Part shown: positions 171 through 55,258 of the stretch, in pieces
How the letters are laid out: the number at the start of each line of letters is the position of its first letter
Numbering within the stretch: position 1 is the first letter of the stretch
NCBI GenBank assembly: GCA_020055645.1
Contig: CM034546.1
Span: 27,094,001 to 27,158,000, forward strand
DNA from: Tomocerus qinae
Lineage: Eukaryota; Arthropoda; Collembola; Entomobryomorpha; Tomoceridae
Length of the DNA: 64,000 nucleotides
Reading direction: 5' to 3'
Notes under the pieces: generated by a model
Told to the model about the DNA's origin: nothing
Database searches by the model: none
The model's input: only the letters and a program-made list of their open reading frames with translations
Translations under genes and position numbers: made by a program

Positions 171-302
171 TATGATTTGTTTAGTAGACTTAGAGATTAT
201 TTCTCTGGAGTATAATGAGGCAAGCAGAACGGGGAGATTCGATGTCCCATTTATGAGTTTCATAAGGTTTCGTCTTATGTGGTCTTTCTGACACTTTTCC
301 AT
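171..302 (-). CDS. CARD-only protein, exon 1 (copy 1; exon 2 lies off the left edge)
   Basis: This 44-codon exon starts at the ATG at 302 and ends at a GTAAG donor (170-166). An in-frame TAA lies just upstream of the ATG, so the protein begins here and is not the tail of a larger one. It encodes the first half of a death-fold domain of CARD type: an N-terminal MEKCQKDHIRRNLMKLI helix, then LPVLLASLYSREII. The pattern fits Apaf-1-type CARDs, where a first amphipathic helix is followed by hydrophobic helix 2/3 positions. The same exon occurs at 31139-31270 and 55127-55258. CARDs assemble caspase or NLR-type complexes by homotypic contact; a free-standing CARD would be an adaptor or a decoy. Bases 1-170 are intron, alignable with introns of the other copies. 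The CARD assignment rests on pattern reading only. Confidence 0.6.
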
Positions 303-873
303 TATATGATGGAATTAATATTCAAAATGAAAATAATAATATGGATATAAATAATAAAAAAGTATAAAATTATACTGTAGTACAACAGCTCTCTAGGGGG
401 AATGAATTTGTGTAATGATTGTGATCTTTGTATATACTGAAAACCAGTAGTCCCGTCAACGAGAAATAAATGTTATATTATATTCCTTATCCTTCCACGT
501 AAGTGATAATATTATCTACTTGATTACGCACACAATACACAATACACACTTAATATTTGCATCCCAATCCCATCCCATGTATGGTCAGTTGATCATCTAT
601 ACATCAGCATGCTGTTCATACGTCATCAATTTACTTTATAATTTGTTCCTTGCACCTGCATATCATGTAGCATGTATTGTTACATTCCAGTATAGTTTCG
701 TAAGAATGTTTTTTACCGATACTTATTGTAAGAATTCTATTCTTTTCTAACACTGGTTTTAATCTTTTTCGAGCAATACATTATGAATCATCCATCCATT
801 ATTTACAAGTGTTTGTAATAGAAACCAGTAGGGTAATTTGGTTGAATTGCAGTCCATTATCCACTTTCTTCGT

Positions 874-960
874 TCAGTTTGTGACAAAAGGGCAATAAGA
901 GACTGAATGAACGGAAAAGTCATTTTTTAAAATTTGGTAGCCTGTTACTGACACTGACAC
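874..960 (-). CDS. Conserved terminal exon of an unidentified gene (copy 1)
   Basis: A 29-codon terminal exon preceded by a TTAG acceptor; it ends in a TGA at 876-874. The C-terminus reads VHSVSYCPFVTN. The same ending recurs upstream of the other two CARD genes: VHSVSHYPFVTN at 32290 and VHSVSHHHFVKN at 55699. The repeated stop position and peptide ending suggest real coding sequence, but I do not recognise the family and cannot trace earlier exons. It lies about 570 bp upstream of the CARD ATG on the same strand. Confidence 0.35.
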   Translation of the reverse strand: MSVSVTGYQILKNDFSVHSVSYCPFVTN

Positions 961-1254
961 CTAATATTTTAACTACATGTTAAGCCTTAAGGCTGCTTCG
1001 ATGATACGGTTTCTTAGCGACTAGCAGAAATGAGTAATTTTACTACGGAGATTGATTATTAACAAACCAAGTCAGTAGGATAATATGACATAATTATTAA
1101 ATTGGCACCGTTCCTCCACTTATTAAATTGCCACAATCTAGTGTAACCGAAAGGAATGATATAAGAAAATCGTAGAAAATTGATTATGGGAAACCCTATT
1201 TGGGGCAAGAAAAAATAAAACACAAAGTCTTATGGTAGCCCTATTTCTTTTAAA

Positions 1255-1428
1255 TCAGAAGCTTTTTGAGAGAAAGGACAACAATAAATCCTCAGAAAAT
1301 ATATCGTACATATGTTTCAAGTGTGACAACTTTTTATTTCCTTCAGTGGACGTGTTATCAATATTCTGCTCATCGACGGATAGCCTTAAAACCTTTCCAA
1401 TAAATGAAATTTCGTCAAAAATGCCCAA
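1255..1428 (-). CDS. Possible exon of unknown protein
   Basis: A 57-codon open stretch follows an ACTCAGCAG acceptor-like site and ends at TGA. It begins LGIFDEISFIGKVLRLSVD and ends with an amphipathic MYDIFSEDLLLSFLSKSF. The composition looks protein-like rather than random AT-rich sequence. The aligned part of the copy near 55.9 kb carries stops, so this is either an exon kept only here or chance. No function can be assigned. Confidence 0.25.
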   Translation of the reverse strand: MGIFDEISFIGKVLRLSVDEQNIDNTSTEGNKKLSHLKHMYDIFSEDLLLSFLSKSF

Positions 1429-1889
1429 CTGCTGAGTTTGACTAGGTCATTGAGAATTCAACTTTTAAGGCTATGTAAAGAACGTTTAAAAATCAAACTC
1501 CTGAACGTTGGAGAACAAGGGTTAAAACATCTGTGAAATTTCTTACGGAAAATCCCAAATAAGAAATTTATAAATTTGATTTCAGTTGTAAAGTCCCGTG
1601 AGGTTAAACTTTACAACTCGTATTGAGTATCACGGAAGCTGTGGATAAGCAAAACCGTGAAAGGCAGTCTTCTCCCCACTCTATTACCCTAAACTTCTCC
1701 TTAATCCTAAGATATCCTTAATTACAATTACATTTAAATTACATGCTATATTTATATGATTCTATTGTTATATCGTCTGCTTAATATTACAAGGTAACAA
1801 GCCATTTTATTATGGCTGCTACAAATTAACAAACCATTTTATCATGGCTGAGACAAGGTAACAAACCACTGTATCAAGAGAGGTGAGAA

Positions 1890-4440: not shown

Positions 4441-4476
4441 GTAGAGTAAAGATTGTAATGTTGCAAACATTTTATT

Positions 4477-21455: not shown

Positions 21456-22028
21456 TTAATGACAAAGTGGCATAGATTGACAAGTGAATATTACATATAA
21501 TATTAATATTACAGCAAGTGAATCAAGCGTGAGAGCAATCGGGTACACGATTAATAAAATGCTGTCTTGGATCAAAATGAAGAGAACATTCAATCTGTTG
21601 TAGAGTTTTATTTTATAATGCAGATTGCATTTCGTAATCCTGTTTTCCATGAAAATTGTCAATATATATAATATTAATTAAGTAATTAAGTATTTTTAAA
21701 AAAATTACAGATAGTTAAATAAATCAATTTGTGTTAACCTGATTTGATGTAGCCAATAAAAAATGCGGACAAATGTTATGAGACTGTAGACCCACAGTAT
21801 AAACGTTGGAAATAGTAAATTAAACATAATTAAGACATGAAGGACTCGCAGTACATAGTCCAAAATTCCACCAGCGATGAAAATAATCTTCAAAAATTTA
21901 TTATTTTGATGGAAAGAAATGACGTAAATCAAGCCCAAAATATCCGGTACCACCATTACTGGGATAATAAACGTCAATATCCAATTCTCGACCCTTTTGT
22001 GATTCTTTCTTTTAGTGCCGGATTTCAC
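21456..22028 (-). pseudogene. Multi-pass membrane (chemoreceptor-like) protein, two internal exons, copy A
   Basis: The 22028-21705 stretch encodes three hydrophobic helices (WILTFIIPVMVVPDILGLIYVI, then VLRVLHVLIMFNLLFPTFILW, then FVRIFYWLHQIRL). 21662-21456 encodes a further segment (RLNVLFILIQDSILLIVYPIALTLDSLAVI). Both have counterparts in the copy at 40.6-44.9 kb. The architecture resembles arthropod seven-helix chemoreceptors (Gr/Or type), but no diagnostic motif is visible. The exons lie downstream of the start exon at 24850 on the same strand. No complete coding path can be drawn, so I treat this copy as incomplete or decayed. Confidence 0.45.
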
Positions 22029-22029
22029 G

Positions 22030-23640
22030 ATAACCTCATCTTGTACATAATAAATATATTAAAGCCAATTAATTTAATTTCAGTTTTAAGTTTAAAAGTC
22101 TCTTCATTCCAGACATAGATTTTAAATTACAAAAACTATATTATAACGTTGGCAAAAAACATCTTCGATTTAAATTATTGACAATGCTTTGACTAGGTCT
22201 GAAGTTAAATTATAAATTTTTTCGAAGTATTGTAAATTTTTTGTTTTTTGATATACTATTCCGAAAATACTTAACATACAGAAATAATTATTAATACCAT
22301 CATAAAAATATTCAAAGAAACATTGGAATTTAAATAAATTGTCTTTATGCTTAATAACTAATTGTAGTTACACACAAGTTTGCATATTATTAGTACCTAT
22401 ATATAGAATCGATTGGTCGATATAAGGAAAACTTTTTATTTAAAACTCAAAAATAGTCCCACAATGTAATTTATGACAATTTAGAAAACGACTAAAAATA
22501 AATATTTAAAAACAAATTTAAGTTTTAGAATATGAATGTCTCAATTTTGGCAAAATTATTTAAGTGCAAAATATAAAAACACATACCTTTTGGGCTTGGG
22601 TAGCAAATACTTTGTGAAAGTAAGGAATTTAAAATCGTCTGCACTAGTTGCCCTCTAGTCGAAATGCTCAGGCCACAACTGTAGAAATGATTTGAAGATT
22701 TAAGACTACAAACATTTGAGATAGCGAGGCGACGTCGTTAAGTTTAAGATCACTGCTTCCAATTGAATATACGAGCCCGTCCATAAACCCTAGCCGTCAC
22801 AACAATGTGAAAAAATTCACACAAAGGAATCTAGCTTATTTCGATTGGAGTACAATGATATTGAACCACTAAAAGATAATTTTTTGCTAATAAAAGCAGC
22901 GTCGTAAGCATCCCGCATTCCAAAACCTTTTACCTTTCATTTTCTTTTTGACGTACAAAGTGATACCTCATTAGAAAGTACAGTGAAATACATAGCTGGT
23001 TTAAAATCAAGAGAAAAAGAAAGAGACTGTGACCTAAAAATTGGTTGACAGAGCTTTTCTACTTTCACAAAGCATTTTCAGTGTAATATTTCTTCTTTAA
23101 GGTATAAATGTCTAATATACACAGTGTACAAAATTTACCACCTTTTGGCCTTATCACAGTGGTAAAAATGCATTTAATGGTGAAAACTACAAATGGTAGT
23201 GAATAATTACCAGAGATACAAAAAATACATATTAAAATAAGGTGTTATGCTCTAGTTCCTCTAAAATAAGATTTATATTTAAAAGAACAATTTAAGTATT
23301 AAAAAAATGTCATTCAAATGTCATTTATGCGCTAGGTAATGGTAACTTAAATGCTGATTTAACTCATAAGTCAATTTTTGACAAAAATCGTCAGATACGA
23401 CGGCGTTTTATGTATAAGCGGCTAATTTTAGTAAAACTTCTGTACGAAAATTAAATAAAAGTAATTTTTACAATTTCTTAACAACACTAATATTTAGGTG
23501 GTAGAAATAACAGTAAATACTATTAAAAACTACTTGCCACTGGAAATGGTAAATGGTATTTTGTACACTTAAAATACATCTTCAGCATAACACCAAAAGT
23601 GCACAATTTTTAGCATGGATTTTCTTTCCAGATTTCATAG
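22030..23640. other. Intron/intergenic; left part duplicated at 59.3-59.67 kb
   Basis: No coding sequence recognised. From about 22310 to 22775 it aligns with 59260-59670 (shared 'tgggtagcaaatactttgtgaaag' type sequence and 'aagatcactgcttccaattgaat'). The alignment then breaks: 59.67 kb jumps to the equivalent of 24610. About 1.84 kb (22775-24610), including the 20-bp array, is therefore extra in this copy. Confidence 0.5.
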
Positions 23641-24340
23641 ATGGTCGAATTTATTCGAAGATGGTCGAATTCATTCGAAGATGGTCGAATTCATTCGAAG
23701 ATGGTCGAATTCATTCGAAGATGGTCGAATTCATTCGAAGATGGTCGAATTCATTCGAAGATGGTCGAATTCATTCGAAGATGGTCGAATTCATTCGAAG
23801 ATGGTCGAATTCATTCGAAGATGGTCGAATTCATTCGAAGATGGTCGAATTCATTCGAAGATGGTCGAATTCATTCGAAGATGGTCGAAATTATTCGAAG
23901 ATGGTCGAATTTATTCGAAGATGGTCGAATTTATTCGAAGATGGTCGAATTTATTCGAAGATGGTCGAATTTATTCGAAGATGGTCGAATTTATTCGAAG
24001 ATGGTCGAATTTATTCGAAGATGGTCGAATTTATTCGAAGATGGTCGAATTTATTCGAAGATGGTCGAATTTATTCGAAGATGGTCGAATTTATTCGAAG
24101 ATGGTCGAATTTATTCGAAGATGGTCGAATTTATTCGAAGATGGTCGAATTTATTCGAAGATGGTCGAATTTATTCGAAGATGGTCGAATTTATTCGAAG
24201 ATGGTCGAATTTATTCGAAGATGGTCGAATTTATTCGAAGATGGTCGAATTTATTCGAAGATGGTCGAATTTATTCGAAGATGGTCGAATTTATTCGAAG
24301 ATGGTCGAATTTATTCGAAGATGGTCGAATTTATTCGAAT
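23641..24340. repeat. 20-bp tandem array, 35 units, two homogeneous variant blocks
   Basis: Thirty-five head-to-tail copies of atggtcgaat-t(c/t)attcgaag with almost no other variation. Unit 1 is the T form, units 2-12 the C form (creating GAATTC), unit 13 is a unique 'gaaattattc' unit, and units 14-35 are the T form. Because 20 leaves a remainder of 2 on division by 3, all three plus frames cycle through the same 20-residue peptide and stay open. The long ORFs here are a by-product of the repeat, not a gene. Confidence 0.97.
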
Positions 24341-25521: not shown

Positions 25522-25548
25522 TTAGAAGACCATCCAAAGGTAAATTAA

Positions 25549-27941: not shown

Positions 27942-28078
27942 TTCTGAATTTGAAGTTAAAGAATCACATACCTTGTTTCGTTAATATTTAAAACTTCATT
28001 CGTATAATTTATTAAACTGAAATACATATTTTATCAAAAATTTCAGCATAAACAGTTACTTAAAGTTTGTACTACGTG

Positions 28079-31000: not shown

Positions 31001-31270
31001 TCCGATGAAACATTGCGGAGGGTCACGTCTAAATTTACCGAGATATAGTGGTGCTGTGGGACTTAGAAATTTGCGCACCGTTATGTCCAATCCCACTCTA
31101 TTTTTTTATATTCAAGGAGGTGATTGAAAGAAACTTACTATGATTTGTTTGGTAGACTTACAAATTATTTCTCTGGAGTATAATGAGGCGAGCAGAACGG
31201 GGAGATTCGAAGTCCCATTTATGAGTTTCATAAGGTTTCGTCTTATGTGGTCTTTCTGACATTTTTCCAT
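28079..31270 (-). CDS. CARD-only protein, two exons (copy A)
   Basis: Exon 1 is 31270-31139 (44 codons, donor GTAAG) and exon 2 is 28234-28079 (51 codons plus TAG, acceptor TTTATAG); they join in phase 0 into 95 residues. Together they read as a complete six-helix CARD: KDHIRRNLMKLI, LPVLLASLYSREII, then YELYTSLMKTSKYNQIIESLIE and PKAAAILQTPLP, which line up well with Apaf-1-type CARDs. A stop lies upstream of the ATG, so there is no other domain. A poly(A) signal (AATAAA, minus) lies at 28013-28008, matching the position in the other copy. The 2.9-kb intron is swollen by a piggyBac remnant (28487-30483) and GC-rich filler. One residue in exon 1 differs from the other copies (Ser to Cys after EII). 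Confidence 0.65.
28487..30483 (+). mobile_element. Degenerate piggyBac element in the CARD intron
   Basis: Flanked by TTAA at 28483-28486 and 30484-30487, with ends cccttcagagcc...gggctctgaaggg. Plus-strand remnants of the transposase can be read: an acidic leader (VDSEEDSADEDGGGLIDNL), a piece with the conserved Asp-Asn box (FFVDNLFNSISLL), then a Cys-rich C-terminal part (CKKCYVGLCVKCF). Frameshifts and stops occur throughout, so it is inactive. Because it sits in an intron it need not harm the host gene. Confidence 0.85.
30065..30250. mobile_element. hAT MITE nested in the piggyBac remnant
   Basis: A 186-bp insertion with ends caaggacgtatccag...ctggatacgtgcttg and the 8-bp duplication 'atcgctaa' (30057-30064, 30251-30258). 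G- and C-runs (gaggggggg, cgccccccccg) lie just inside each end. A 5'-truncated copy is at about 57449-57571. Confidence 0.85.
30545..31115. other. Intron filler with C-rich repeats
   Basis: Within the CARD intron. It contains a 'gttgccccn' repeat run (about 30590-30645) and an imperfect inverted pair 'aggttaggtcaaaaaagaggc' / 'gcctcttttttgacctaactt' (30690-30800). The shorter introns of the other copies lack it, so it is another insertion. No coding sequence. Confidence 0.5.
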
Positions 31271-31432
31271 TATATGATGGAATTAATATTCAATGATACT
31301 ATGAATATAAATAGTAAAAAAGTATAAAAATATTCTGTAGTAAAACAGAACTCGCAGTGCGGTGTAATGAATTTGTTAATGATGATGAGCTTACTTGAAA
31401 ATGGGCGCCATGTAGACGGCAAAAACAATTTA

Positions 31433-41280: not shown

Positions 41281-41450
41281 TTTTTCAATCCAATTATACG
41301 GAAAGCATCGTAAGTTGCAAAATCCATAACGTGGTAAAGTTTTATCGTTGCCGACGTGCAAAAAATTACTGCGAGTGAATCAATCGTTAGATCAAATGGG
41401 TACGTGATTGATAAAATGCTGTCTTGGGTCAAAATGAAGAGAACATTCAT
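40572..41450 (-). pseudogene. Multi-pass membrane (chemoreceptor-like) protein, 3' exons, copy B
   Basis: The 41450-41103 stretch contains NVLFILTQDSILSITYPFDL, homologous to 21662-21456, then LKNIVVVVLTLVLSFFENMW. The 40775-40572 stretch carries the presumed C-terminus: SAALPQGDKNKLFYRKVVMS, MRLGPISNVRHEKTTEYY and a last hydrophobic helix NSIVTFLIIF before the stop. The last-helix-then-stop arrangement fits Gr/Or-type receptors. The tandem duplication in this region and the 3-kb insertion at 41470-44463 split the gene, so it is unlikely to be functional. Confidence 0.42.
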
Positions 41451-41469
41451 TCTGTTGTAGAGTTTTATT

Positions 41470-44463
41470 AATAAGAGGTTCGCTCTTATTATTAACTAGT
41501 GAACCCAGCAAAGGAACGAACCTAGCAAACCCATCATATACACCAAATTTTTGGTGCATATCTATACTTTTTACATTATATTATATGTAATTATAATATG
41601 TAATTATTATATACATAATTATTCGATAATTTGTTGGAAAGTCATTAGCCAATAGTAAACACATTGAATCTTTATTGTGCAGAAAATACACTACGACTTT
41701 TAAATGCAGAAAATATTATTCAAATACAATGGAAATTATTAAAAGCTAAAATTACAAATAACAATTGGTTTTAAATAAATAACATGAAACCTACTTTTTC
41801 AGATCTTATTTAATGTGTACAAATTAAATTTTACCATACGTTTAATCTGTTTCAGCAGCAGTTTCAGTCTTCAGGACGTGTAAGTATGAATACGCAGTTG
41901 ATAATTTTCAGATTAAAAAATGAGTATTTCTTTTGATAGGCATACGGAAGTGAATTCGGTAGTTTGTGTTTTCGTCAAAACTCACCAAAGAATGAATTGA
42001 AAGTGCAAAATGTAAACAGTGTATGCAGTAAAAAACACTTCACAACAAAGCAAAACACTTTTAACTCAGCTGATACTTCTGAAAGTTGCATTGTACAAAA
42101 TGTGCATATTATGAAACAATTCTGTTTTAATTTTGGTATACTGCTAGAGCCTCGGCTTATTCTACTTTCAACACCCATTTCCAAATTTCATGACATGCAA
42201 ATTTTACTTTTACGATCGCCCTACCAGACATACATACAAACATACATACATAGATACATAGGTAGGTAAATTTATTGCTTTATCAAGTCTACGATTATAA
42301 AATAGAGATAAGAGGTTCGCTCTTATTATTGCGAGTAGTTTGTGTTTCTGTCTGTCTGTCTGTCTGTGCCCCACCCCTCCATGCATAAGCTGTGTGCTCA
42401 ATAACTTTTGACAGAAGTAATATTTTTAAATTCTGTCTTCGGATCCTGAAACCAGATGTATGACTTAAGGTCAAGTTCGTTAATGGGCCACATCGGTCAC
42501 ACCCACAGGTCATGGCGAGTGACTTAATGTCGATGACCGTTACATTCCATTCTAGTTACAATATGATGCAATATGATGCGATATTCCAGTTTCCCGCAGA
42601 CCCGCCACATGTTTTACTTCTTCCTCTCATTCCACCGTGACTTAAATTTTCGTATATCCACTGCGTATTCTGCTTAACGTCCCTATCAAACGTCACTTTA
42701 CAATTCGTACTTCAATTTTCGCGTATTTTACATTTCGTTCAAACCTATTTAACGTTGATTTCGTCATTACATTTACCTTCACAATTCAACAATTATCTCA
42801 ATCGTCGTGAAATTATTTGTTTAATTTCGTTTGTTACACGTATCACACGTCAAAGGTACTTTTCTTTAGCGATTTTTACATTACATTTCCTTCACACATA
42901 TTCTACGTCGATTTCATCATTAAATTTTACTTCCACATTTCAACAGTTCTCTCCGCCCCATTATGTTGGTTATTTCACCACTCATCGAAGGTACATCCCT
43001 TTGGGTACTTCATTTTGACTAAACTAAACCTTTGAAGTAATCACGAGCTACCATTTATGACGAATTCGTCTTACACGTAAGTAATACCCCTTATTTTATT
43101 TTACTTTTCACATATTTTACATTTCGGTCCTCCCATTGACGTTATCAGTTTTACTCAACGGTAAAATTCGTCAATTATTTTATTTCAGTTGTTATTACAT
43201 TACTCATCATCATTATCATACTCTACCTTGACTCACCTTGAATTACAAAATTAAATTTTACTTTTGAATGCAGATCATGCCCAAATTAAAAAAGATAGTG
43301 TACAAGAAAACCTGCAAGAAGACCGAGAGAGAAAGAAACAAATGTGAAAACAGAAAAAGGATAGTGATTACTTCAAGTCTCAATTACTGGGGAAGACGTA
43401 TCAAAACAAAAGGCTATAGATCTGCGTGATTATCACCGAAAAAATAATGTTTGATGTATGCCGACATGTAGAGGTGATGCAGTAATGCGAACACAAGAAA
43501 AACAATAGGATGCAATGGCTCATCAAATAGCAAGACTAGATCTAGCAATCCGTTCACCAGAAAAGCAGATGGATGCAATAGCTCATAAAATAGATCAAGA
43601 CTGGATTCCCTAGTGCGCACATCGGAGAAGCAGAAGGATGCCCTTGATATGTTTTCCAAGATAAAAACATTGACTATACAGTACCTGACAAAATACAGTA
43701 AATCAAAAGCGTGTGAAGGGCAGCGTTTCCATCATTTTGCTATGTTGCCACATTGACATCACATCAGCCGTACAATTTAACGGTCATCGTAATATTATTT
43801 TCGTGAATCGTGTGAAAATCAGCTGCCCACTTATTTATTTTCCATAAGAAAGTCACAAACACGGCGGGAATAACTATGACTCTCTTATGGGTACCAAATG
43901 AATTCCCATTGTCCCTGTCTACTGTCTATCGAAACCACAGTCAAAAGGGAATGATTGATGTGGGCGGTGGGGAAACTAATGAACTGTAATTTAGTTCGGC
44001 ATTATGGGGAAACATGAGAGGTGTAAAAAAGGGGAACAGCTAGGTCAACTTTGAAATATTAGTACTACACTGCCGTTTTCGTCACTCACTCAGTGAGGTG
44101 GAATGCAGCTAGATTTCCTTCGGGTCTTTTAATTCAATAGCGTCTGCTTTCAAAATTCAAACAATGTCGTGTAATAGTTCTTCTAAAAAAGCTCCTTAAA
44201 CAACTTTTTAAATACTATATGACAAATACCTTAATCTCCCGTCTTGGGAAGTGGGTAACTTTCATTCTGTACATTCTAACCACTTCTTTTGACTCCTAAA
44301 CACTTATCATGTTACCGAATGCAATCAAAATACATTTCAGGGCCGGTCTGTCGTGGGGGTAAATGGGCGGCCGCCTGGGGCCATAAGGCCCCACGATGTT
44401 TAACACAAAATTTTACCATCTTTTTTAACCTTTGACATTTTATGAACCTCTTATTGCCTACAC
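41470..44463. mobile_element. Composite ~3-kb insertion with Helitron-like parts
   Basis: Copy A reads 'gagttttattttataatgc' without a break. Here the sequence is interrupted after 'gagttttatt' and resumes at 'tttattttataatgc'. The insert has 'ataagaggttcgctcttatta' twice (41468 and 42308). It contains 'actagtgaacccagcaaaggaacgaacctagc' near 41493, the complement of a Helitron 3' end like that at 48800. It also holds (taca)n and (tgtc)n microsatellites (42225-42265, 42345-42370) and a Helitron-like short ORF at 43277. It probably combines several insertions. Confidence 0.55.
43277..43429 (+). pseudogene. Short basic ORF resembling the start of a Helitron-encoded protein
   Basis: 50 codons, MPKLKKIVYKKTCKKTERER onward, highly basic, followed by a stop. 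Arthropod Helitron proteins often begin with a similar Lys/Arg-rich segment after a TCTGTCTG-rich leader such as the one at 42345. It is only a fragment. Confidence 0.25.
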
Positions 44464-44589
44464 CCTGTGTGTAACACAGTTTATTTTATAATGCGGATTG
44501 CATTTGGTAACCCTGTTTGCAATGAAAAATGACAATATATAATATTAATTAAGTAATTAAGTATTATTTTTTTTAAAATAAAGCAATTT

Positions 44590-44919
44590 GTGTTAACCTG
44601 ATTTGATGTAGTCAATAAAAAATTCGGACAAATGTTATGAGATTGTAGACCCACAGTATAAACGTTGCAAACAACAAATTAAACATAATTAAGACATGAA
44701 AGTCACTCGCAGTCCATAGTCCAAAATTACTGAGATTTTGGATCCATTGCAGGAATTCACAAACACGAATATTCCTTCCTTAGAATTCCAATAAAATGGA
44801 ATGCATCCAATACTATGGGCGAAGTTAACATAATTCGCGAACCAATGAAAATGGTTGCTTTTTTCATTAGGTTTTATTTTTATTGTCTGCTGTATACTAT
44901 TTAAAATATTTCTACCCAT
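44590..44919 (-). pseudogene. Start and first membrane exons of the receptor-like gene, copy B
   Basis: It starts at the ATG at 44919 (MGRNILNSIQQTIKIKPNEK, IGCIPFYWNSKEGIFVFVNS) and runs into the sequence that in copy A is the 22.0-kb exon (LDYGLRVTF, then LIMFNLLFATFILWVYNLIT in another frame). A frameshift near 44700 and a stop in place of Trp near 44625 break it. The intron that separates these exons in copy A appears to be missing here. Confidence 0.45.
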
Positions 44920-44959
44920 ATCTTCACAAGCAATGAATAATCTTATTATAAAAAATACA

Positions 44960-46862
44960 GTTCAGTGAAAACGTATATGGCCTTATTTTCCCTATTTTAC
45001 TTTCTAAATACTCCATAGATATATAGAGAAAAGTGATTCAATCAAGGTTTTGCTTTTTCTTTTATACAGTAATCCCGGAAGCAATTAGAGAATGTCAAGG
45101 GGAAATTTAATAAGTTACGTTTGATTTCTCATAAAATATAGTAGTTCATTAATCATTAATTACCAGACATTGGAATTTTATTTAAGTAAAATTTTTACAG
45201 CCTTCTCATAGAGTTCTGAGACTTCGTATCTACACGAATCGTGCACTGAGGATTTCAAAAATGTAAAAGTGTTAGTAAACTTTTTTACACTTTTGAGTTA
45301 TAAAAAAGATTAAAGTTTTAGTAAATTTTTTTTATATAAAAAAAGTTTACGTAAAATTTTCGACATAAAAAAATCTTAAGAAAATATTTTGGCAATTTCC
45401 AGAATATTGTATATTCAATTTTTTTTCAAAATTCTCAAAATGAAACTGTTACAGTAAAATAAATGCATTTGCATAAATTATGTTTTCAATAAGCCTACAG
45501 TGACCAAGATTATCCAAGGTTAATCGGGGCGTTCAAGCATTACTTTAGTGTCGCTGTAGTTAGAGTTGAATTACAAGAAAAATTGCAATATGCAGAAAGT
45601 AAAACTGACAATTTCCGTCTTTATTTCTTGTTAATTGAATTTATTCTATTATACCAATTATTGTTATAATGTTGTAGTATGCACAAGGCATTTTTAAGTC
45701 CACGGCGACAAAAAATGAGTATGGAAAATATTGAAATGTCAATGGTTTCACGTTATTATTATTTATCCATATGATTTTGCCATGGGTGTAATTTTGCCCG
45801 TTTTGTTGACTTTATTTAATTTCAATTTTAAAAATTTAATTTAAGAATTAAGATAATATTGACGATATTACGTTTGGATTGAATTTTAACGTATTAATAT
45901 CCGATTTTAAATTGGTTTGGAATTTAGGAAGTTAAGATTTGATTTTAAGTTTAGATTAAATTTTAATACTAATATGATTTTAAGATGGCAAGCTTGGACA
46001 ACATTTTAATATTGCAATATGTTTTAAGATGTTAACTTTGGATTTTAAAATTGAAGATTAAATGTTCAATAATGAAATGATATTCTTATTTACCACCTGA
46101 TTATTTAGGTAGGTAGAGTTTCTGGCTTTTGATTTTTCAATGTTATATTATAGATAATATTTTTGCCGAAATCGAAAGAAAACTGTTTAGAGAAAATTTT
46201 TGCCGAAATCGAAAGAAAACTGTTTAGAGAAAATTTTTGCCATGTTGGTAAATTTTTATAAAAAATTTTTTGCCATTTTTGGTAAAATTTTATAAAAAAT
46301 TTTTACCATTTTTTGGTAAATTTTCGTGTAAATTTTTTGCGATTTTAAATAAATAAAATCCCGACGTATGCTCATTACTGAAATCGCATATCAAATCTCG
46401 CCATTCTTGGGTATCATTGGAAACCTAGGAAACGAATCGGCATTGGTGATATTATATTTGTTTATTTAAATTAATATTTTTATTGTACATTTTTTTTACA
46501 TTTTAAACAGATAACACCAAAACAGCATAATAATATACATCTTGGAAAGCCTCTATCAATAGATAACCAAACTATTTTATCAATCAGCAGAAATGTAATA
46601 ATATATATAGGCGTCTCCATACACTAAGATCAACAATGAAAACCTTAGGAATTCTACTGTTATTTGATGTGAATTGAACAAAAACGCAACCCAAAAACCC
46701 AGCTTATTTTGCTTTTCATGCTCTGATCCAAATCGCTATTTTTTTATTTATTTCTAGACAACTAATATTTAGGAATACTTAAACTTGTTTATTTACTATT
46801 GTCTGCAATTGTCGTATAGGTGCCCCGGTCCATGAGTATGGATGTAGTATGTAACCGTTCCA
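44960..46862. other. Intergenic, AT-rich, small tandem repeats
   Basis: No gene seen. 44960-45180 aligns with 24900-25100 of copy A. 46150-46240 holds two copies of a 38-bp unit ('gccgaaatcgaaagaaaactg'). 46240-46330 holds 'atttttgccatttt.ggtaaa' repeats. Confidence 0.5.
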
Positions 46863-47195
46863 TTATGTTGAGTACATTGCATTCATTTGATTTAGTATTT
46901 CCTTTGGAGCAAGATAACCCATATAACAAGTGATGTCGTTGATAGGGCTATTCATTTGAGAGCATTTGACGTTGGTGTTTTGTTCAAACACTTCATTTGT
47001 TAGCTTTAATGTCTCCTTTGGATTAAGATAACGGCTGCGAAGTTTTATAGCCTCGAGTTTTTTTGTTATTACAATATCTTTGTTGGTTAAATCGTATTGC
47101 AAATGTTGAACATATGCTGAAGCCTTCCCGTCATTTCCATGAACGAATACGACACTTTCCCCAAATTTTGTTGCCACTGGTTGACTCGGGCACGC
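46863..47195 (-). CDS. Terminal exon of an unknown protein
   Basis: 110 codons after a TTTTTTAG acceptor at 47197-47196, ending in TAA. It is open throughout and well balanced in composition: it starts ACPSQPVATKFGESVVFVHG, has a charged middle (KKLEAIKLRSRYLNPKE) and ends LAPKEILNQMNAMYST. Three cysteines after the first residues and alternating hydrophobic positions suggest a folded domain, but I do not recognise it. It has no counterpart in copy A. It may belong with 47398-47652 upstream. Confidence 0.45.
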   Translation of the reverse strand, partial: ACPSQPVATKFGESVVFVHGNDGKASAYVQHLQYDLTNKDIVITKKLEAIKLRSRYLNPKETLKLTNEVFEQNTNVKCSQMNSPINDITCYMGYLAPKEILNQMNAMYST

Positions 47196-47397
47196 CTAAA
47201 AAATTAAATAAAAACATAAATCTATACTTCCATGTACGAGCTTCTAAAATTTGCATATACTCTCTTGTAAACAACAATGTTAATTGTTCCCCATAATTTA
47301 ATAAGCACAGGAGGAAGGCACATAAAAACTAATTTCGCCCCCCCATGTCTCTGGAACTTAGAGTTTTAGTAATGGAGACAAGAGGTATAAACATCAT

Positions 47398-47652
47398 TTA
47401 GAAGACCGTCCAAAGGTCAATTAATAAGTTGTCGTCATAGTCAATATCACTAGACTCTAAGTGTTTCGAAAAATCATTAAAAATAAAAAAGTCAAAAACA
47501 CTGGCCGATATCAAAATTTCTGGATTTTTCTGGCCATAATAATTTTGGTTTTTTAAAACAGGCGTTTCAACCTTCTTTGGAGGTGAACATTTTTTGCATT
47601 GATCATTTTTCATCAAAATCAGAGCAATTTTCAAAATTTGACAATACTGCAA
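47398..47652 (-). CDS. Exon-like ORF of unknown function, copy B
   Basis: 84 codons, with NDQCKKCSPPKKVETPVLKN followed by an acidic FNDFSKHLESSDIDYDDN. It is the unbroken version of the frameshifted sequence at 25549-25831. Exon boundaries are not clear: no strong acceptor precedes it and no donor precedes the stop. Confidence 0.35.
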   Translation of the reverse strand: MQYCQILKIALILMKNDQCKKCSPPKKVETPVLKNQNYYGQKNPEILISASVFDFFIFNDFSKHLESSDIDYDDNLLIDLWTVF

Positions 47653-47895
47653 TAAAATTAAACCACCGTGAATGGTTAAGACTATTATAGAAAATCAAAC
47701 TTGCAAATTCATGGAACTATAATTTTTTATGTACACCAGTTTTATAATATCAGATTATATACTGGAATAATTGGGTAAACAAATGTTGGAGTTTCGACAA
47801 TTAGCAAAGTTTTGAAACTTTTTGTTAGTAAACTAACCGTTTAAAGCACTTTCTTCTCGTCCATATGTATCCTATTATGTGTTTATTCATATATA

Positions 47896-48800
47896 TCTCT
47901 ATATAATAAAATTAATTATTCCTATGTCGCAGGTATCTATGTATCTATCTATGCAATGGACAATGCGGCATTTTGTTGCAATGCACATGCGCGTATACAA
48001 CCCATGTTTCATAAAACAAGGAAGTCCAATATGAGTAAACATTAGCTTATTTCGAAATTAGACAATGTTAATATTATGCATAATAATTTTGAAATTCAGC
48101 AATGATACTGGGGGACTATATTATTATAACATCAAAACAAAAATAGAAATTTACATAAAATGATTATTTTGTGATGGAAATGACTGGCGAAAGGGAAGAT
48201 TTCGTAATGATCGTAATGTCCGTATTATAATTAGCATTTCAAAACTCCTAATCCAAATTGTGTATGCTAAATCGGCAAACTTATTTAGCATTTTTTAGTA
48301 GAGCTGGTTTTATTTTTTATTATCCCCCTGATTCCTTTGCGTCAGTTTGCACAACGTTTTGTAGAATTAATATAATAACAGTACTGGGGGACACTATTTA
48401 TCCTTTAAAAATATTTATTCGTAAGTTGTTCTCATGGAATTTGTACGTTTTTCCAAAATCCCAGGGGGAATCTTATTTTTCTGATTTTAAATGGTAGCAT
48501 TTTGGTAACTTTTTGAGCTGTTTATTAAAAATGGTGACTTTCATTGTCCCCTGTATTTGATGCTACAATCAACAATTATTGTTGGGGCTTAGTAAATCCG
48601 TTTTTATCAGGAAGTTGGAACTGCAGATAATTTTTCTAAACGCTGTAGAAAATAAAAGTATATTTAAATTATTGTATTTACAACTTTAATATAATAACCT
48701 AAAGGAAATAAAGATGATTTTTTCGGAATTTATCACTGAGGTGGGTGGTCTGCTGAATGTCTCTTGAGTGCTAGGTTCGCCCCTTAGCTGGTTTCACTAG
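47896..48800 (+). mobile_element. Non-autonomous Helitron, delimited by an empty site
   Basis: It starts TCTCTATATAATAAAATTA and ends ...GGTTTCACTAG, inserted between A and T with no target duplication: 5'-TC, CTAG-3', target AT. Copy A has the uninterrupted 'tcatatatattataactgtc' at about 26019-26038. No Rep/helicase coding. Decayed relatives of its 3' end are near 41493. Confidence 0.85.
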
Positions 48801-49046
48801 TATTATATAACTGTCAACTAAACTGTACAAAGTATACAAAATTCTAGTTAATTTGTTAATTACTAGTGAAATTTTAGTACGATGTAATGGCTTAATTGCC
48901 CGATGCAAGCCCTACACGAATTGCAATTAAATGGATATACATCATGCTGCTATGAATTTGTTTAGAAGCATGAATAACCATATCGATTTTTATCGATTAT
49001 TCCACTTCACGATAAATAAGAAGCAAGAAATAGCATAACCCCTGAG

Positions 49047-49765
49047 CAAGGTATCGAAAAACCCGGGTTTTTAGGAAAAAACTCACGACCCCGGGTTTTT
49101 TGGGTTTAAGGGTTTTTTATATAACTATAGGCATAAATTCAAGCCTATACTATACCTTATAGAAAAACTACAGCTGATAATAACAACATCTGTGTGTAAT
49201 CTTGCAACTAGTAGTACTTACGCATATAAAAACAAAAATTAAAACACAAAAAGTTTAATTGTTAACATATTTTAACACACAAATATGCAATTTTTTTGAG
49301 CATCTATACTATTATTACTTTTTGATAACAACTTCTAAATAACTAGTCATTGTAATATTTTACTGATTAAATTGACTTCATGAAATTCCTTCATTAATTT
49401 GGAGCTTTAATTGTGAAGCAGTGCAGCAATGAATTGAAAAAGTAAGGAGTTAATTAAAATTGAGCATAATTATGTATACAACAATATAATTTTCCAAAAC
49501 GATTAAGACTTGCAAACTTAAAACTAATATATAGCAAACCTAGTCATCTCGATATGACGCATATTTTGCACGTAAAAGTGTAGAAGCTACAATTTGTTTC
49601 CGCCTGATTGTATATTTGTTTAGATTTTTAGTGCACATTTTTGTATGTTGTGTAAAAAACCCAAAAAACCCAATAAACCCGGGGCTTTTTAAGTGAAGCG
49701 GGGTGGGTTTTTTGCCAAAAAACCCAAAAAACCCCAGCCCATAAAAAACCCGACCCACAACCCTG
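49047..49765. mobile_element. hAT element rich in 'aacccgggtttt' motifs
   Basis: A 719-bp insertion absent from copy A, where 'aacccctgagagacaaaa' is continuous at about 26284. It is flanked by cccctgag (49039-49046) and tccctgag (49766-49773), an 8-bp duplication with one change. The subterminal regions contain many 'aacccgggttt', 'ttttttggg' and 'aaaacccaaaa' motifs in both orientations. Ends caaggtatcg... and ...acaaccctg are imperfect inverts. No transposase. Confidence 0.8.
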
Positions 49766-51634
49766 TCCCTGAGAGACAAAACATCATGCAGAGTCTAAAA
49801 CAATTAGCGACAAATAAGTAAACAACTTTGTTGATATACTCCGGCCGGCATATTGTGTGATATAAATGGGATTGAAAATCTTGGATCCTACTTCCTACTA
49901 GAAATTCGGAAGAGATGTAGGCACGTAATGTTTTGTTTCGTTTCACCTTCTTCATAATATAATACATTATTTCATGATTTATCACAGAAATTTCAAAACC
50001 ATTAATCCTTCCTACGACGAAATAAGATAAGACAAGTTGGCAAAGAAAGAAAGTTCTATGCGGGATAGTTGGACTTAAAAATTTAAATTAAGTGCTTATC
50101 AAAGTAATTACAGCCTACGTCTTCTAAATACTAACAAGGGTTTCTTAAGCGGGGTTTCAATGGTTTTGAGAAGGTTTTCGTTTTTATCGCATACCATGAC
50201 GGTTAAAGGTTTTCGTTATCAGGTTGTAAAAACCTTTTGTAAAGTCACGAAAACTATTTTTATATTAAAAAGAAGCCGTATTATTTGTTTCCAAATTAAT
50301 TTGACTAGGGTTTGAAATGCCCTTGTACCAGCGTTGTGTAACTTTCCCTGATTTAAGAAACTTGTCTAGCGCAACAACAAAATCTCAACACCCATGTACG
50401 GAAATACAAAACACTACACAAAATGTCGCTGCATGCGTTTATAAAACTGTACTGTCTATAATTAAGAACTTAAAACTTCGTACGAATGTTCTCAAAAATT
50501 CATCGAAAATATATGAGAGTATACAGATAAGACAAGACTTTAGAATTTTTTAATTATGGACGAATTTTGAGGACGAAAGAATTTATGAAATTTGTACGGA
50601 ATGTAGTTACTTGTCCATGTATAGTATGTATGTTATGTGATTTACGGTGTGCTGTCTCATTACAGAGTGATAATACTGGGCGCAGGCCTCTTTACGGGCC
50701 TATTCAGGGTTAACAGATTTTCTTCGACGAATTTAAGTATCCTGGCCAACAGTGACCATTTACCAACCCGCGCCCTTCGGGCGCGTCTTGGTAAATGCTT
50801 TCAAATGTCATACAGCCGTATTTGCCGCTATCATATGAGCGCAGCTATCAAATGTACAGTTTTGTGATAAACAAGAAGCAAAAATAAGTAAATCACGCAT
50901 CTTGAAATAAATATTCTTTTGCATATTAATTCATAAATGAAGGAAAAAATCAAGAGAAAATACTGATTCGCGCTAAGCGCGAGAAATTTTTGAAATTCAA
51001 CTTCAAAACTGATAAATAAAGACAACGAATTTTGATTAATATAGTTTTAACGGTTTAGTGACATCTTAGCTGAGGAAGAGAGGTTTGTTATTTATACCCC
51101 ACTGATTAGTTATTAATGCATTTCCTTCGAAATTGTAAGACAAATTTGACTATTAAACTGGATTAAAAAACAAAAAATACTTAAATTCGCGCGAAGCGCC
51201 AGAAAATTTTAATTAGTCAACGTTTATGAACGATAACAAAGTGTGTTCTAATATTAAAGGAGTTCAAGTTATTTCACCGTTTTCGATTTTAGCTGATTTA
51301 AGTGTATTTAAGTATGATTTAAGTATTTTAAAACACTTGCAAGTATTTTAAGTATAGGGCCCAATTTAATTATTATACCTGCCATTTAAGTACTAGTAAT
51401 AGGCCCGTTCTCTGAACGGGAAATGGGTAACCCTTTAATGGGGACGGTAGATCATGAGTATGCATTATGCATTTAAAAAAGTATGAAAATTAACAGATTA
51501 AAATGTTTAAAAAATTGTTTGCTGCATTGCTACAACATCCTACGGACGGGGAACCAAATACAATACTTATCGAATCAACATAATAATAGTGAACCAAATT
51601 CAACATCATTTAACTAAACAGCGAAATTAAAGTA

Positions 51635-52030
51635 ACCCCGTCATTTTAAATAACCCCGTCGTCATTTTAAATAACCCCGTCGTCATTTTAAATAACCATG
51701 TCGTCATTTTAAATAACCCCGTCATTTTAAAAAGACGTAATTGTAAATAGACTTCATTGTAAATGACAGTGTTGCAGCCAGGGGGCAGGGTGAAGCATCG
51801 AGGCAGAGCCCCATTGAAATCAAAGAAAAAAAAGCAATTTTTGCCTTAAAACCAAAAAGAATTTTCATATTTTCACTGATAATTATAAATAGACGTCATT
51901 GTAAATGACCCCGTCATATTAAATAGACTTCATTGTAAATGACCTCGTCATTTTAAATAGACGTCATTGTAAATGACCCCATCATTTTAAATAGACGTCA
52001 TAGTAAATGACCCCACATTTTAAATAATTT
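51635..52030. repeat. Irregular 'gtcattttaaata' repeat
   Basis: About a dozen copies of an 18-22-bp motif, '(c)cgtcattttaaataaccc' or 'gtaaatgac...', spaced irregularly and broken by unrelated sequence at 51770-51890. Confidence 0.75.
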
Positions 52031-52204
52031 CGTCGTTTAGAATCAGCCCTTCATTTTGAAAATCTATAAACATTATTTTAATAAATCTCGTCATTATTAA
52101 TAACCTCGTCATTTTAAACATTCCTGTCATTTTAAATAATCTCTTTATTTTAAATATTCCTGTAATCTTAAATATCCAAGTCTTTTTTCACCTCTTCATT
52201 TTAA

Positions 52205-52445
52205 GTAGCTCTGTTTTAGCTCGCCTGAGGAAGCGAGCTTATAGAACCGCACAGTCTGTCCGTACGTCCGTCCGTCCCCACGATAACTTTCGAAAGCAAT
52301 GACGGATATTTACTAAATTGGCAAAAACAATGCCTATGGACCACTGACGATCCCTATTGAATTGGGGGTAAATCGGTCCATTGGTTGCCGAGATACCGCG
52401 CGCTCACTTTGTCTTCATTTTGATAGTCAAAGTGATAATTTGGCA
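52205..52445. repeat. Dispersed 240-bp repeat, second copy at 57020-57250
   Basis: Both copies start 'ttttagctc', share 'gaggaagcgagcttatagaaccgcacagtctgt', 'ccccacgataactttcgaa' and 'gagataccgcgcgctcactttgt', and are in the same orientation. They are probably ends of a larger non-autonomous transposon; partial 'agctcgcctga' pieces also occur at 53248 and 53402. Confidence 0.75.
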
Positions 52446-52599
52446 TTAAATGGACATTACAAAGTTCAATGGCGTTTCCTATAAATTGTTAGCGTGATAG
52501 TATAAAATATTTCATTACGCTTCTACCAAATTTGAGATTTTATAATAAAGCAAATAAAACCGGAAAATAACTGTTATACGATGGATATAAATCTATTTT

Positions 52600-53205
52600 G
52601 GATTTATATTCAATTTTATAGTCAAATTACCATTTTTCGATTTCCTTTCAATTTTTATAGTCATTATTAGCCGAATTTTATTTTCTGTCGATTTTAATAC
52701 TCATCAATCAAAGTTGAATATCTGTTGATTTTCATAGTCAACATTAATTTACTTTGATTTTCTGTTGATTTTTATAGTCAACGTTAATGTAATTTGATTT
52801 TCTGTTGATTTATATAGTTAACATTAATGTAATTTGATTTTCTGTAGATTTTTATAGTCAATATTAATCAATTTTGATTTTCGGTTGATTTTCATAGTCA
52901 ACATTAATCAATTTTGACTTTCTGTTGATTTTTATAGTCGGCATTAATCTACTTTGATTTTGTGTTGATTTTTATAGTCAGCATTAATCAGTTTTGATTT
53001 TCTGTTGATTTTCACTGTCAACATTAATCAATTTTGATTTTCACTATCGGCATTAATCAATTTTGATTTTCGGTTGATTTTCACTGTCAACATTAATCAA
53101 TTTTGATTTTCTGTTGATTTTCATGGTCAACATTAATCAATTTTGATTTTCAGTTGATTTTCATTGTCAACAATCATCAATTTTGATTTTTTGTTGATGT
53201 TTAAA
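52600..53205. repeat. ~44-bp minisatellite
   Basis: About a dozen copies of 'ttttgattttctgttgatttt-atagtcaacattaatcaa' with substitutions and small length changes, strongly strand-asymmetric (T-rich on the plus strand). Confidence 0.88.
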
Positions 53206-54640
53206 TTATATAGCTTCGTTTCCTTATGGTATCAATGTCTGAATTTTAGCTCGCCTGAATAAGGCAGCTTATTTAATATGTTGTAGCTACATACATAAAG
53301 ACTCAATTCTGAAAGTTTGATCAAAATCCGTACGCTCGGTTTTGTGTTACCTACTTGTGGGTACTTTTCGTTTACCAAAATGTGTACACGGTAACCTTTA
53401 CTCAGGCGAGCTTCTGTTACGGCTTGCTGTGGGTTTTTTTAATTAGCTACCAATATTTTAATCGTCCTTGTTACTTCTATCTATTTTCTATCTACCCCGT
53501 CACTTTTATTGACCAATCCTATGTCAAGTCAAGTCATGGCATATTCAATCCACAACCAATCGATACTACCTATATAAACGTTGTCTTGCTATTAATAGTT
53601 TGACTCCGCTGCGGTCGCCCCGTTCGAGGTGAAAGGGACACTAATCTCTTCACATGGCGGAGGCCTGCCTGCTTAAAGAGTAGGACTTTGTCAAATTTTC
53701 GAAATTCACTGGCAAAATATTTTCTACTAAAAAATAATGGAGTGGCTACCGTCTTCATTATTAAGTCGAGTAGCTCAGGAAGAAGTTTGGTAAAGATCGG
53801 ATAAAAACTGTAGGAGGAGTATTTGAACAAAGCGTGACAGATCGGAGCGTTTTCTCCCACTCCTTCAATGTTAAAATTCGAAATTCAAAAAATCGTAAAA
53901 CGATTTATATGAAAGATATCGTTTTGAAACTCGAAGTTTGGGGTTCTGACTATGATGTGCCCATGCAGTAAAAATTTGAAAGTCGTAAGTTGATGTTAAA
54001 GGACATTTGTGCAGCTATTATTATATAGATACCTGGTAACTCTGGGCCTATTGCCAACTTCCTCAACGCTGTATTATTGTTAATTAATCCCCGAGAAACT
54101 TAAAGGCTGTCATTACGAGTCAGTGCATTTTGTGGGACTTTTGTCGGAAGTCTACTAGCCCAATAAAGACAGGTGATCCAAGCTACTCTCGTACGCTCAC
54201 ACCTTCGTGTTAATTCCACATGCAAATTTACAACTCAAACATACTCGCCTTTAAACAGATAAATCTCGGCCATTTCACCTAGTCAAAGACTCGAACTGGC
54301 AGTGAAAGCACACATTGATTAATCAGACCGACGACAGATAAGACATATGTGGCTGGGCTGACTTTTTATACCAAATCTCAGTACAGAATATAGATAGCTT
54401 TCAGGTTACAGGACTATTGATAGGCTTCGCCATCAGAGAAACCTTTTAAGAAAGCTTCCGAACAGTTTCAATTTGGACTACTAAAGATCTAGTTCTGAAT
54501 TTAAAGATTTACAGTAATATACCTTGTTTCGTTAACATTTAAAATTAATATCTTTAATTTATTACGTTATTGAAATACATGTTTGGTCACTAGCATTAAA
54601 AACTTTTGAAGCATAAACGAAGTTTGGAAAAAAGTTTGGA

Positions 54641-55258
54641 CTATGTGCTATACGCAGTTATAGGTAATGGCGTCTGAAGGATAGCTGCAGCCTTAGGATT
54701 CTCTGTTTCGATTAAGGAATCAATAATCTGATTGTATTTACTTGTTTTCATCAGTGAAGTATACAGCTCATAACCTTTTGAACACTCGTCTGGGTAACTT
54801 TCCTATAATAAAGACAGTATATTAAATATTGGGATCATGGAAAATCATAAAATAATATCCGGAGTATTCTGGACCCAATCATGATATTCAGTTATGTAAG
54901 ATACAATATTTGACGTAATTCTAATTATTTAAGAGGAGAAATTAAGGTAAATAAAACAAAATGTGGTTACTACAGCGGTTAAAATAGCGAAACAAATAAA
55001 TACTATACGGTTAAAATGTTGGGAAAATATCAAATCTCGTGATAGGGGTTTGCAAAAATTATAAACGTAGATAATGTCATATTGGAGGTATTTTCTTATT
55101 TAAGGAGATGATGAAAAGAAACTTACTATGATTTGTTTTGTGGACTTAGAAATTATTTCTCTGGAGTAAAGTGAAGCGAGCAGAACGGGGAGATTCGAAG
55201 TGCCATTTATGAGTTTCATAAGATTCCGTCTTATGTGGTCCTTCTGACACTTTTCCAT
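54641..55258 (-). CDS. CARD-only protein, two exons (copy B)
   Basis: Exon 1 is 55258-55127 (44 codons, donor GTAAG) and exon 2 is 54802-54641 (53 codons plus TAG, acceptor TTATTATAG), giving 97 residues with a 324-bp intron. The sequence is a whole CARD-type six-helix domain and nothing else; an in-frame TAA precedes the ATG. Exon 1 encodes exactly the same 44 residues as the copy at 171-302 although 11 codons differ. Exon 2 differs from copy A by one residue (Glu to Asp), one missing Tyr codon and a few added C-terminal residues. AATAAA (minus) at 54563-54558, about 80 bases past the stop, matches copy A. This is the most compact copy and is likely functional. CARD is inferred from pattern; other death-fold classes fit less well. 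Confidence 0.68.

What the first reader, a model, noticed from the sequence alone, without database searches (positions are those of the whole stretch)
171..55258. A family of free-standing CARD proteins kept intact by purifying selection inside decaying duplications
Seen: three minus-strand copies (171-302; 31270-28079; 55258-54641) with the same ATG, an upstream in-frame stop, an identical splice phase and, in the two complete copies, the same AATAAA position. Between copies 171-302 and 55127-55258 all 11 differing codons (12 substitutions) are synonymous, and copy A has a single amino-acid change. Flanking introns and neighbouring exons have drifted or broken. Known: CARDs recruit caspases or build immune scaffolds, and CARD-only proteins in vertebrates act as decoys. 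Inference: a selected multi-copy CARD-only family that could tune an apoptosome- or NLR-like pathway. The exons are too short for default gene finders.
Basis: partly seen in the sequence, partly recalled or inferred. Interest (0 to 1): 0.88.

Follow-up and report, generated by a model that had tools for sequence, protein, structure and literature searches.

The report
CARD-only gene family under purifying selection
An insect- or crustacean-like animal carries at least fifteen intact copies of a tiny gene that encodes nothing but a CARD, a docking module of cell-death and immune signalling, and selection has kept the protein nearly unchanged while the surrounding DNA decayed; the same genome holds over a hundred NB-ARC sensor-like domains, many with a CARD beside them, that these small proteins may regulate.

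Summary
The third copy's second exon lies just left of the window. The genome (334 Mb) holds 15 loci of the family, all with start, GT donor, AG acceptor and stop. Codon ML gives omega 0.138 for 15 copies (2dlnL 218), 0.160 for seven copies with one array member. Between array and dispersed copies, introns and most flanks are near shuffled baseline while coding DNA is 86-87% identical. It is a CARD: one member passes Pfam's cut-off, and a profile of 12 other CARDs of the genome finds 15 of 15. The genome also has at least 126 NB-ARC domains, 46 with a CARD exon upstream, and a CARD-caspase. Mitochondrial gene order suggests Pancrustacea. Most likely these are soluble CARD regulators (decoys or caps) of a CARD-NB-ARC/caspase pathway; their charge pattern is opposite to the other CARDs' average. 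Binding, fold and expression were not tested. New variant of a known kind (primate CARD-only proteins).

The parts
171..302 (-). Copy A, exon 1 (44 codons, ATG to GTAAGT donor); its exon 2 lies outside the window at G000:C1:27092170-27092304
31139..31270 (-). Copy B, CARD exon 1 (44 codons)
28235..31138 (-). Copy B intron, 2904 bp, phase 0; about its first 36 and last 250 bp align with copy C's 324-bp intron, the middle has no counterpart there
28079..28234 (-). Copy B, CARD exon 2 with TAG stop
28008..28013 (-). Copy B AATAAA, 65 nt after the stop
55127..55258 (-). Copy C, CARD exon 1 (44 codons)
54803..55126 (-). Copy C intron, 324 bp, phase 0
54641..54802 (-). Copy C, CARD exon 2 with TAG stop
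54558..54563 (-). Copy C AATAAA, 77 nt after the stop
21505..31387 (-). Duplicated unit B (CARD gene plus exons of a gene without a Pfam match over a cut-off), colinear with unit C
41362..55370 (-). Duplicated unit C, colinear with unit B; several non-CARD exons carry in-frame stops
56027..60253 (-). Partial further unit D; by its order, its CARD gene is probably the copy right of the window at G000:C1:27160627-27161217 (inferred)

Best explanation
A family of at least 15 two-exon genes, each encoding one CARD of about 90 residues and a short variable tail. Shown: the genes are intact, the CARD is kept by purifying selection, and the genome has many CARD-NB-ARC genes and a CARD-caspase. Inferred: the proteins are soluble CARDs that dock on CARDs of the CARD-NB-ARC sensors (or of the caspase) and compete with or cap the CARD-CARD assembly that recruits the initiator caspase, setting a threshold for cell death or an immune response. 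The opposite charge layout (first half basic, second half acidic, against acidic and, on average, slightly basic in the other CARDs) favours docking on sensor CARDs.
For: 15 of 15 loci have ATG, GT donor, AG acceptor and stop, with the CARD frame open. Omega 0.138 for 15 copies, lnL -1633.69 vs -1742.76 for omega 1; 0.160 for seven copies with one array member. Introns and flanks beyond about 120 bp within 0.03 of the shuffled baseline between the six array copies and five dispersed ones (G, H, K, M, N). CARD identity: 6 of 10 members scanned hit Pfam CARD at E <= 1, member O at 24.8 bits against a cut-off of 23.9; 15 of 15 found by a profile of 12 other CARDs, E 2e-11 to 4.5e-6, best of 1200 shuffles 11.2 bits; those 12 hit Pfam CARD 12 of 12, best 3.7e-14. 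Pathway: 126 of 126 scored NB-ARC matches over the cut-off, 46 of 126 with a CARD-exon match upstream (0 strand-flipped, mean 1.1 shifted); caspase frame with SHG and QACRG beside a CARD exon. Charge: family first half +3 to +5 (9 unique), other CARDs -6 to +1 (24 unique of 27; the three dropped for length are -1, +1, +2); second half -3 to -5 (11) vs -4 to +8, mean +1.3 (27 of 28; the dropped one is -3).
Against: No expression, fold or binding evidence. Family sequences share one ancestor, so the charge contrast may be one event and its p values are not independent; second-half ranges overlap. Most members tested score below Pfam's CARD cut-off (window copy C 14.0 bits, copy B no match), and no PDB CARD is found by sequence except ASC at E 1.8, below nine non-CARD rows. 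Human CARD-only proteins are closer copies of their target's CARD (PMC3775265, passages), whereas this family sits on a long branch and no particular sensor or caspase CARD is its nearest kin.
Confidence: 0.5

Rival explanations
1. The CARD-only proteins are positive adaptors: they bridge sensor CARDs to the caspase CARD or seed a CARD filament, rather than block it.
For: Opposite charge layout would suit bridging as well as blocking; many positions, charged ones included, are invariant in the 10 copies aligned, which fits conserved binding faces; one CARD-caspase was found against at least 46 CARD-NB-ARC loci, so a shared adaptor is plausible.
Against: Single-domain adaptors are unusual; the vertebrate adaptor ASC has a PYD and a CARD (PMC11508797, passages). 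No binding data.
Confidence: 0.27
2. The CARD works outside the caspase pathway, for example with a CARD kinase or an NF-kB-like branch.
For: CARDs serve several pathways (general knowledge); the family is not close to the caspase CARD.
Against: 46 of 126 NB-ARC matches and one caspase locus have a CARD exon beside them; CARD-kinases were not searched for.
Confidence: 0.12
3. The copies are dead fragments of CARD-NB-ARC sensors or carry no function.
For: Neighbouring exons of the duplicated unit are broken; the array exon 2 may owe its uniformity to gene conversion; 4 of 15 loci (H, J, M, N) show no AATAAA within 300 nt of the stop.
Against: Omega 0.128 to 0.205 in the four sets tested, each 2dlnL at least 17.8; 15 of 15 loci open, AATAAA in 11 of 15; long separate branch from the other CARDs.
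Confidence: 0.05
4. The gene is cargo of a transposable element, which explains the many dispersed copies.
For: Copies at five places of C1 and one of C4; the window holds P-element-like and Pao-type frames.
Against: No shared flank beyond about 120 bp upstream or past the stop between array and five dispersed copies; introns kept; local copies are parts of segmental duplications. Terminal repeats and target-site duplications were not searched for around the dispersed copies.
Confidence: 0.04

Closest known systems
Human CARD-only proteins CARD16 (COP/Pseudo-ICE), CARD17 (INCA), CARD18 (ICEBERG)
   Same: A free-standing CARD of about 90-97 aa, multi-exon gene, local gene cluster, genome also holding CARD sensors and CARD-caspases (PMC3775265, passages).
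   Different: Those are primate copies related to the caspase-1 CARD (97% identity quoted for CARD16, 53% for ICEBERG); this is a separate subfamily in a pancrustacean, 15 loci, with an intron inside the CARD and no near kin among the other CARDs examined.
CARD-NB-ARC sensors of the Apaf-1/CED-4/Dark type
   Same: Homologous CARD with an intron at the same place.
   Different: No NB-ARC or repeat domain in the family; charge layout reversed on average.
Caspase-9/Dronc CARD
   Same: CARD family; this genome has one such CARD-caspase.
   Different: Family has no protease domain and is not closest to that CARD.
Ranavirus CARD proteins
   Same: CARD-only, 91 aa in grouper iridovirus (PMC4457926, abstract in search listing).
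   Different: Viral; no relative of this family found in IMG/VR by pattern scan. Not aligned with ranavirus CARDs here.

Membership tests
CARD domain (Pfam PF00619) | Score over the curated cut-off of 23.9 bits | tested here: inconclusive
   Of five members with printed scores only O passes (24.8 bits, E 2.2e-5); P 18.1, C 14.0, N 12.9 bits, B no match. 6 of 10 scanned members hit at E <= 1.
CARD domain (Pfam PF00619) | Homology over the full domain to accepted CARDs | tested here: met
   Profile of 12 other CARDs finds 15 of 15 members, 1200 shuffles stay at or under 11.2 bits; hhalign of 10 members against the 12: 96%, 79 columns; O matches profile positions 2-84 of 85.
CARD domain (Pfam PF00619) | Six-helix death fold | not tested
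   The spliced product is not a contiguous translation of the window, so it was not sent to the structure tool.
CARD-only proteins (COPs) | Single CARD without a partner domain, own start and stop | tested here: met
   15 of 15 loci; no NB-ARC match within 70 kb of any copy in the list (126 of 253 candidates scored). Caveat: copies A and D have a 128-aa frame with an 81-nt insertion.
CARD-only proteins (COPs) | Binds and inhibits a CARD-caspase or CARD sensor | not testable with these tools
   Needs binding and activity assays.
CARD-only proteins (COPs) | Recent descent from the CARD of its target | tested here: not met
   Branches of 1.95 (family) and 0.7 (12 other CARDs) part the two groups, support 100/100; no sensor or caspase CARD stands out. 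Only 12 other CARDs were in the tree. So it may work like a COP; it is not a member of the primate set.
CARD-NB-ARC sensor (Apaf-1/NLR-like) | NB-ARC domain in the same gene | tested here: not met
   None of the 126 matches listed lies in or within 70 kb of the 15 loci.
Functional gene under selection | omega well below 1 | tested here: met
   0.138 (15 copies), 0.160 (7), 0.128 (9), 0.205 (6 array copies).

The most novel reading that the evidence does not exclude
A pancrustacean has a sensor repertoire of plant or vertebrate scale: at least 126 NB-ARC domains, many with a CARD exon just upstream and some with TPR repeats, feeding few CARD-caspases, and policed by its own old family of charge-reversed CARD-only proteins. 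That would be an NLR-like inflammasome or apoptosome system, with built-in decoys, in a phylum said to lack it.
Probability: 0.5. Interest if true: 0.82.

Novelty: new variant of a known kind. Interest (0 to 1): 0.62.

Why it matters
[quoted passage not shown] abstract), and a survey of metazoan NLRs says that arthropod NLRs lack the N-terminal effector domain and doubts arthropod inflammasomes (PMC11508797, passages). Table 1 of PMC2246300 (section 5 part 1) lists one CARD and one NB-ARC each in fly and worm (the fly CARD not confirmed by Pfam there), 84 and 16 in amphioxus. Fifteen conserved CARD-only genes beside at least 126 NB-ARC domains in a pancrustacean would be an independent origin of CARD-only regulation and a testable system for how CARD decoys and sensors co-evolve.

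Tried and rejected
Protein database search with copy C: 2 candidates shared words, none scored E <= 10. PDB by sequence with copy C, with the 10-member profile and with member O: no CARD except ASC at E 1.8. Viral contigs: 61 pattern matches, none a relative. Naming the source CARD of the family by exon profiles: exon-2 scores not above shuffles, exon-1 winners spread over several sensors. Organism naming: the springtail guess came from recall; paper searches with springtail or Collembola terms gave no paper on CARD or NB-ARC (0 papers; Folsomia genome paper without CARD, NB-ARC or Apaf, passages), and the transposase search gave one protein with an organism name, a crab, at 31%, so only Pancrustacea is claimed, from mitochondrial gene order (the protein genes were named by eye, and the diagnostic value of trnL2 between cox1 and cox2 is recalled). 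That stretch lies inside contig C1 and may be a nuclear copy. Counting CARDs: 141 matches at E <= 10 include weak ones (16 of 141 marked over the cut-off; on the face of the E-value about 10 chance matches), so I rest on the exon pattern and the adjacency test, not on the number; the adjacency test itself uses all 141. Tree of 27 CARDs: 2 of 22 inner branches starred, 14 open. For the CARD-caspase the top PDB row is a designed TIM barrel without a passing stretch (E 0.0023), above caspase-9; its two CARD exons were joined by eye.
Full report
OBSERVATION. Exon 1 is 132 nt in each; exon 2 is 156 nt (copy B) and 162 nt (copy C); translation gives 95 and 97 aa. Between 171-302 and 55127-55258, 12 substitutions fall in 11 codons and all are synonymous; Nei-Gojobori dN/dS 0.019, Fisher p 1e-7; B against C over both exons 0.066, p 4.6e-6, while exon 2 alone (3 differing codons) gives p 0.11. 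The unit 21505-31387 is colinear with 41362-55370, and pieces of it recur at 26-1485 and 56027-60253. Other exons of the unit contain in-frame stops in copies C and D, so the contrast of intact CARD and broken neighbours is real.

THE FAMILY IN THE GENOME. The window is G000:C1:27094001-27158000 of a 334-Mb genome in 115 contigs. A search with copy C gave 50 matches; the best 30 pair into 15 loci with both exons, the other 20, weaker, were not pursued. Six loci form an array at C1:27081534-27161217 (three of them in or touching the window), four lie at C1:27458050-27631738, one each at C1:18.90, 65.48 and 124.53 Mb, two on C4 at 8.557-8.560 Mb. All 15 have ATG, GT donor (GTAAGT in 14 of 15), AG acceptor, and a stop after the CARD; an in-frame stop lies 15-18 nt upstream of ATG in 11 of 15, 36 nt in P, 147 nt in H, J and K; AATAAA occurs within 300 nt of the stop in 11 of 15, not in H, J, M and N. 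Over the 88-residue CARD part 13 of 15 proteins are distinct, and 14 of 15 coding sequences.

SELECTION. Codon ML (MGK+F1X4, 91 codons) gives omega 0.138 for 15 copies, lnL -1633.69, against -1742.76 with omega 1. Subsets: 0.160 (7 copies with one array member, 2dlnL 104.5), 0.128 (9, 208.8), 0.205 (6 array copies, 17.8). Mean identity between array and seven dispersed copies (O and P left out) is 0.87 in exon 1 and 0.86 in exon 2. Against five dispersed copies (G, H, K, M, N), introns (0.78), downstream DNA (0.74-0.77) and upstream DNA beyond 120 bp (0.74) are within 0.03 of the shuffled baseline (0.75-0.77); the last 120 bp before ATG stands a little above it (0.81 vs 0.76). Within the array exon 2 has dS 0.058 against 0.252 in exon 1, which points to short-tract gene conversion; the exon-1 result and the set with one array member do not rest on it.

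IT IS A CARD. Pfam CARD hits copy C weakly (14.0 bits, positions 3-82 of 85) and copy B not at all; 6 of the 10 members scanned hit it at E <= 1 (10 of the 15 were put in that alignment), and member O passes the cut-off (24.8 vs 23.9 bits). A profile built from 12 other CARDs of the same genome, family left out, finds 15 of 15 members at E 2e-11 to 4.5e-6; the best of 1200 shuffled members scores 11.2 bits. Those 12 hit Pfam CARD 12 of 12 (best 3.7e-14). hhalign of 10 members against the 12: 96% probability, E 3e-9, 79 columns. The intron sits at the same place: of 141 CARD matches in the genome (E <= 10) 113 are first-half matches, 99 of which end at profile position 39-41, 22 are second-half matches starting at 34-43, and 6 are neither.

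THE PATHWAY AROUND IT. Twelve of the 22 second-half CARD matches lie in frames of at least 400 aa. Four of these (L061-L064) and one first-half match in a 640-aa frame (L065) were read: five of five have NB-ARC over the cut-off; a CARD row appears for L061, L062, L063 and, at its far end, L065, not for L064 at E <= 0.05. Two more loci chosen from the NB-ARC list: L069 has NB-ARC; L070 has TPR families over their cut-offs but no NB-ARC row, although its place was matched by NB-ARC in the genome search. Genome-wide, 126 of 253 NB-ARC candidates were scored and 126 of 126 are over the cut-off, 116 on C1. 46 of 126 have a CARD-exon match upstream on the same strand within 8 kb; flipping strands gives 0, downstream 2, 500 random shifts mean 1.1, maximum 5. 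Caspase domain: 46 exon matches at E <= 0.01 from 54 scored, in 22 clusters, some with in-frame stops. Beside C4:17649210-17649970 lies a CARD exon (C4:17648602); that CARD scores 36.6 bits, finds caspase-9, Dronc and CED-3 chains in the PDB at E 0.003-0.015, and the downstream frame has SHG and QACRG and hits Peptidase_C14 at 1.2e-24. No other caspase match was found within 19 kb of a CARD match (14 nearest-looking CARD rows picked by eye from the 141).

CHARGE. Net charge of the first CARD half is +3 to +5 in 9 unique family sequences and -6 to +1 in 24 unique others (mean -2.3; 3 of 27 dropped as too short, charges -1, +1, +2); second half -3 to -5 in 11 and -4 to +8, mean +1.3, in 27 others (1 of 28 dropped, -3); the CARD-caspase has 0 and +2. 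CARD-CARD contacts of the Apaf-1/caspase-9 kind pair a basic with an acidic face (recalled). The contrast suggests docking on sensor CARDs but is one evolutionary contrast, not independent points.

ORGANISM. A mitochondrial stretch in C1 (36.67 Mb) reads through with the invertebrate code over cox1, and its order is I, -Q, M, nad2, W, -C, -Y, cox1, L(UAA), cox2, K, D, atp8, atp6 (tRNAs by ARAGORN, protein genes other than cox1 named by eye; two further ARAGORN calls inside nad2 are taken as false). L(UAA) between cox1 and cox2 marks Pancrustacea (recalled). Within that, no name.

MECHANISM. Shown: genes, selection, CARD, context. Inferred: the product is made, folds, and binds other CARDs. The most likely role is a decoy or cap on CARD assembly; an adaptor role is the main rival.

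KNOWN KINDS. It works, if at all, like primate COPs, which a 2013 review restricts to higher primates (PMC3775265, passages), but shows no recent descent from a target CARD. Trichoplax has 39 NB-ARC genes (PMC6321704, passages); amphioxus 84 CARDs and 16 NB-ARC (PMC2246300, section 5 part 1). My ten paper searches listed no paper whose title or abstract start names a CARD or NB-ARC repertoire of this kind in an arthropod; lists were capped (for example 10 of 546 papers) and cover only the held open library.

Noticed in passing
G000:C1, 126 places; L061-L065, L069, L070: NLR-scale repertoire: at least 126 NB-ARC domains, 46 with a CARD exon upstream; of seven loci read, six show NB-ARC in Pfam and one shows TPR repeats.
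   Followed up: partly
array copies E, F, A, B, C, D (C1:27081534-27161217): Exon 2 is four times less diverged at synonymous sites than exon 1 (dS 0.058 vs 0.252), as if gene conversion had copied exon 2 alone.
   Followed up: partly
L043 and L040, end of exon 2 of copies A and D: An 81-nt in-frame insertion after the CARD that begins GAG-GTAGGA and ends CAG; it may be a new intron or a 27-residue extension.
   Followed up: no
L065:279-2198: One open frame holds CARD second half, NB-ARC and, at its end, a CARD first half: a second CARD at the far end, or fusion with the next gene.
   Followed up: no
L066 (G000:C1:36670928-36672268 and flanks): A long intact mitochondrial stretch sits inside contig C1; further cox1 pieces, some with stops, lie near C1:139 Mb and on C81.
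   Followed up: partly
23553-24420, + strand: A tandem repeat with a 20-bp step is open in all three frames over about 250 codons (FEDGRIHSKMVEFIRRWSNS).
   Followed up: no
20807-19273, - strand: Swt1-like HEPN match (below its cut-off) joined to a protein kinase, in two overlapping frames.
   Followed up: no
17366-16818, - strand: Hsp70-like fragment, followed by frames down to 16000 that gave no Pfam match where scanned.
   Followed up: no
63152-60873, - strand: P-element-like transposase with an open frame of 759 aa; closest database protein 52% identical, unnamed.
   Followed up: partly
12454-7448, - strand: Pao-type retroelement in four abutting frames separated by stops (two of the four scanned).
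   Followed up: no
120 bp upstream of the ATGs (array copies against G, H, K, M, N): Slightly above baseline similarity between array and dispersed copies, a possible promoter element.
   Followed up: no
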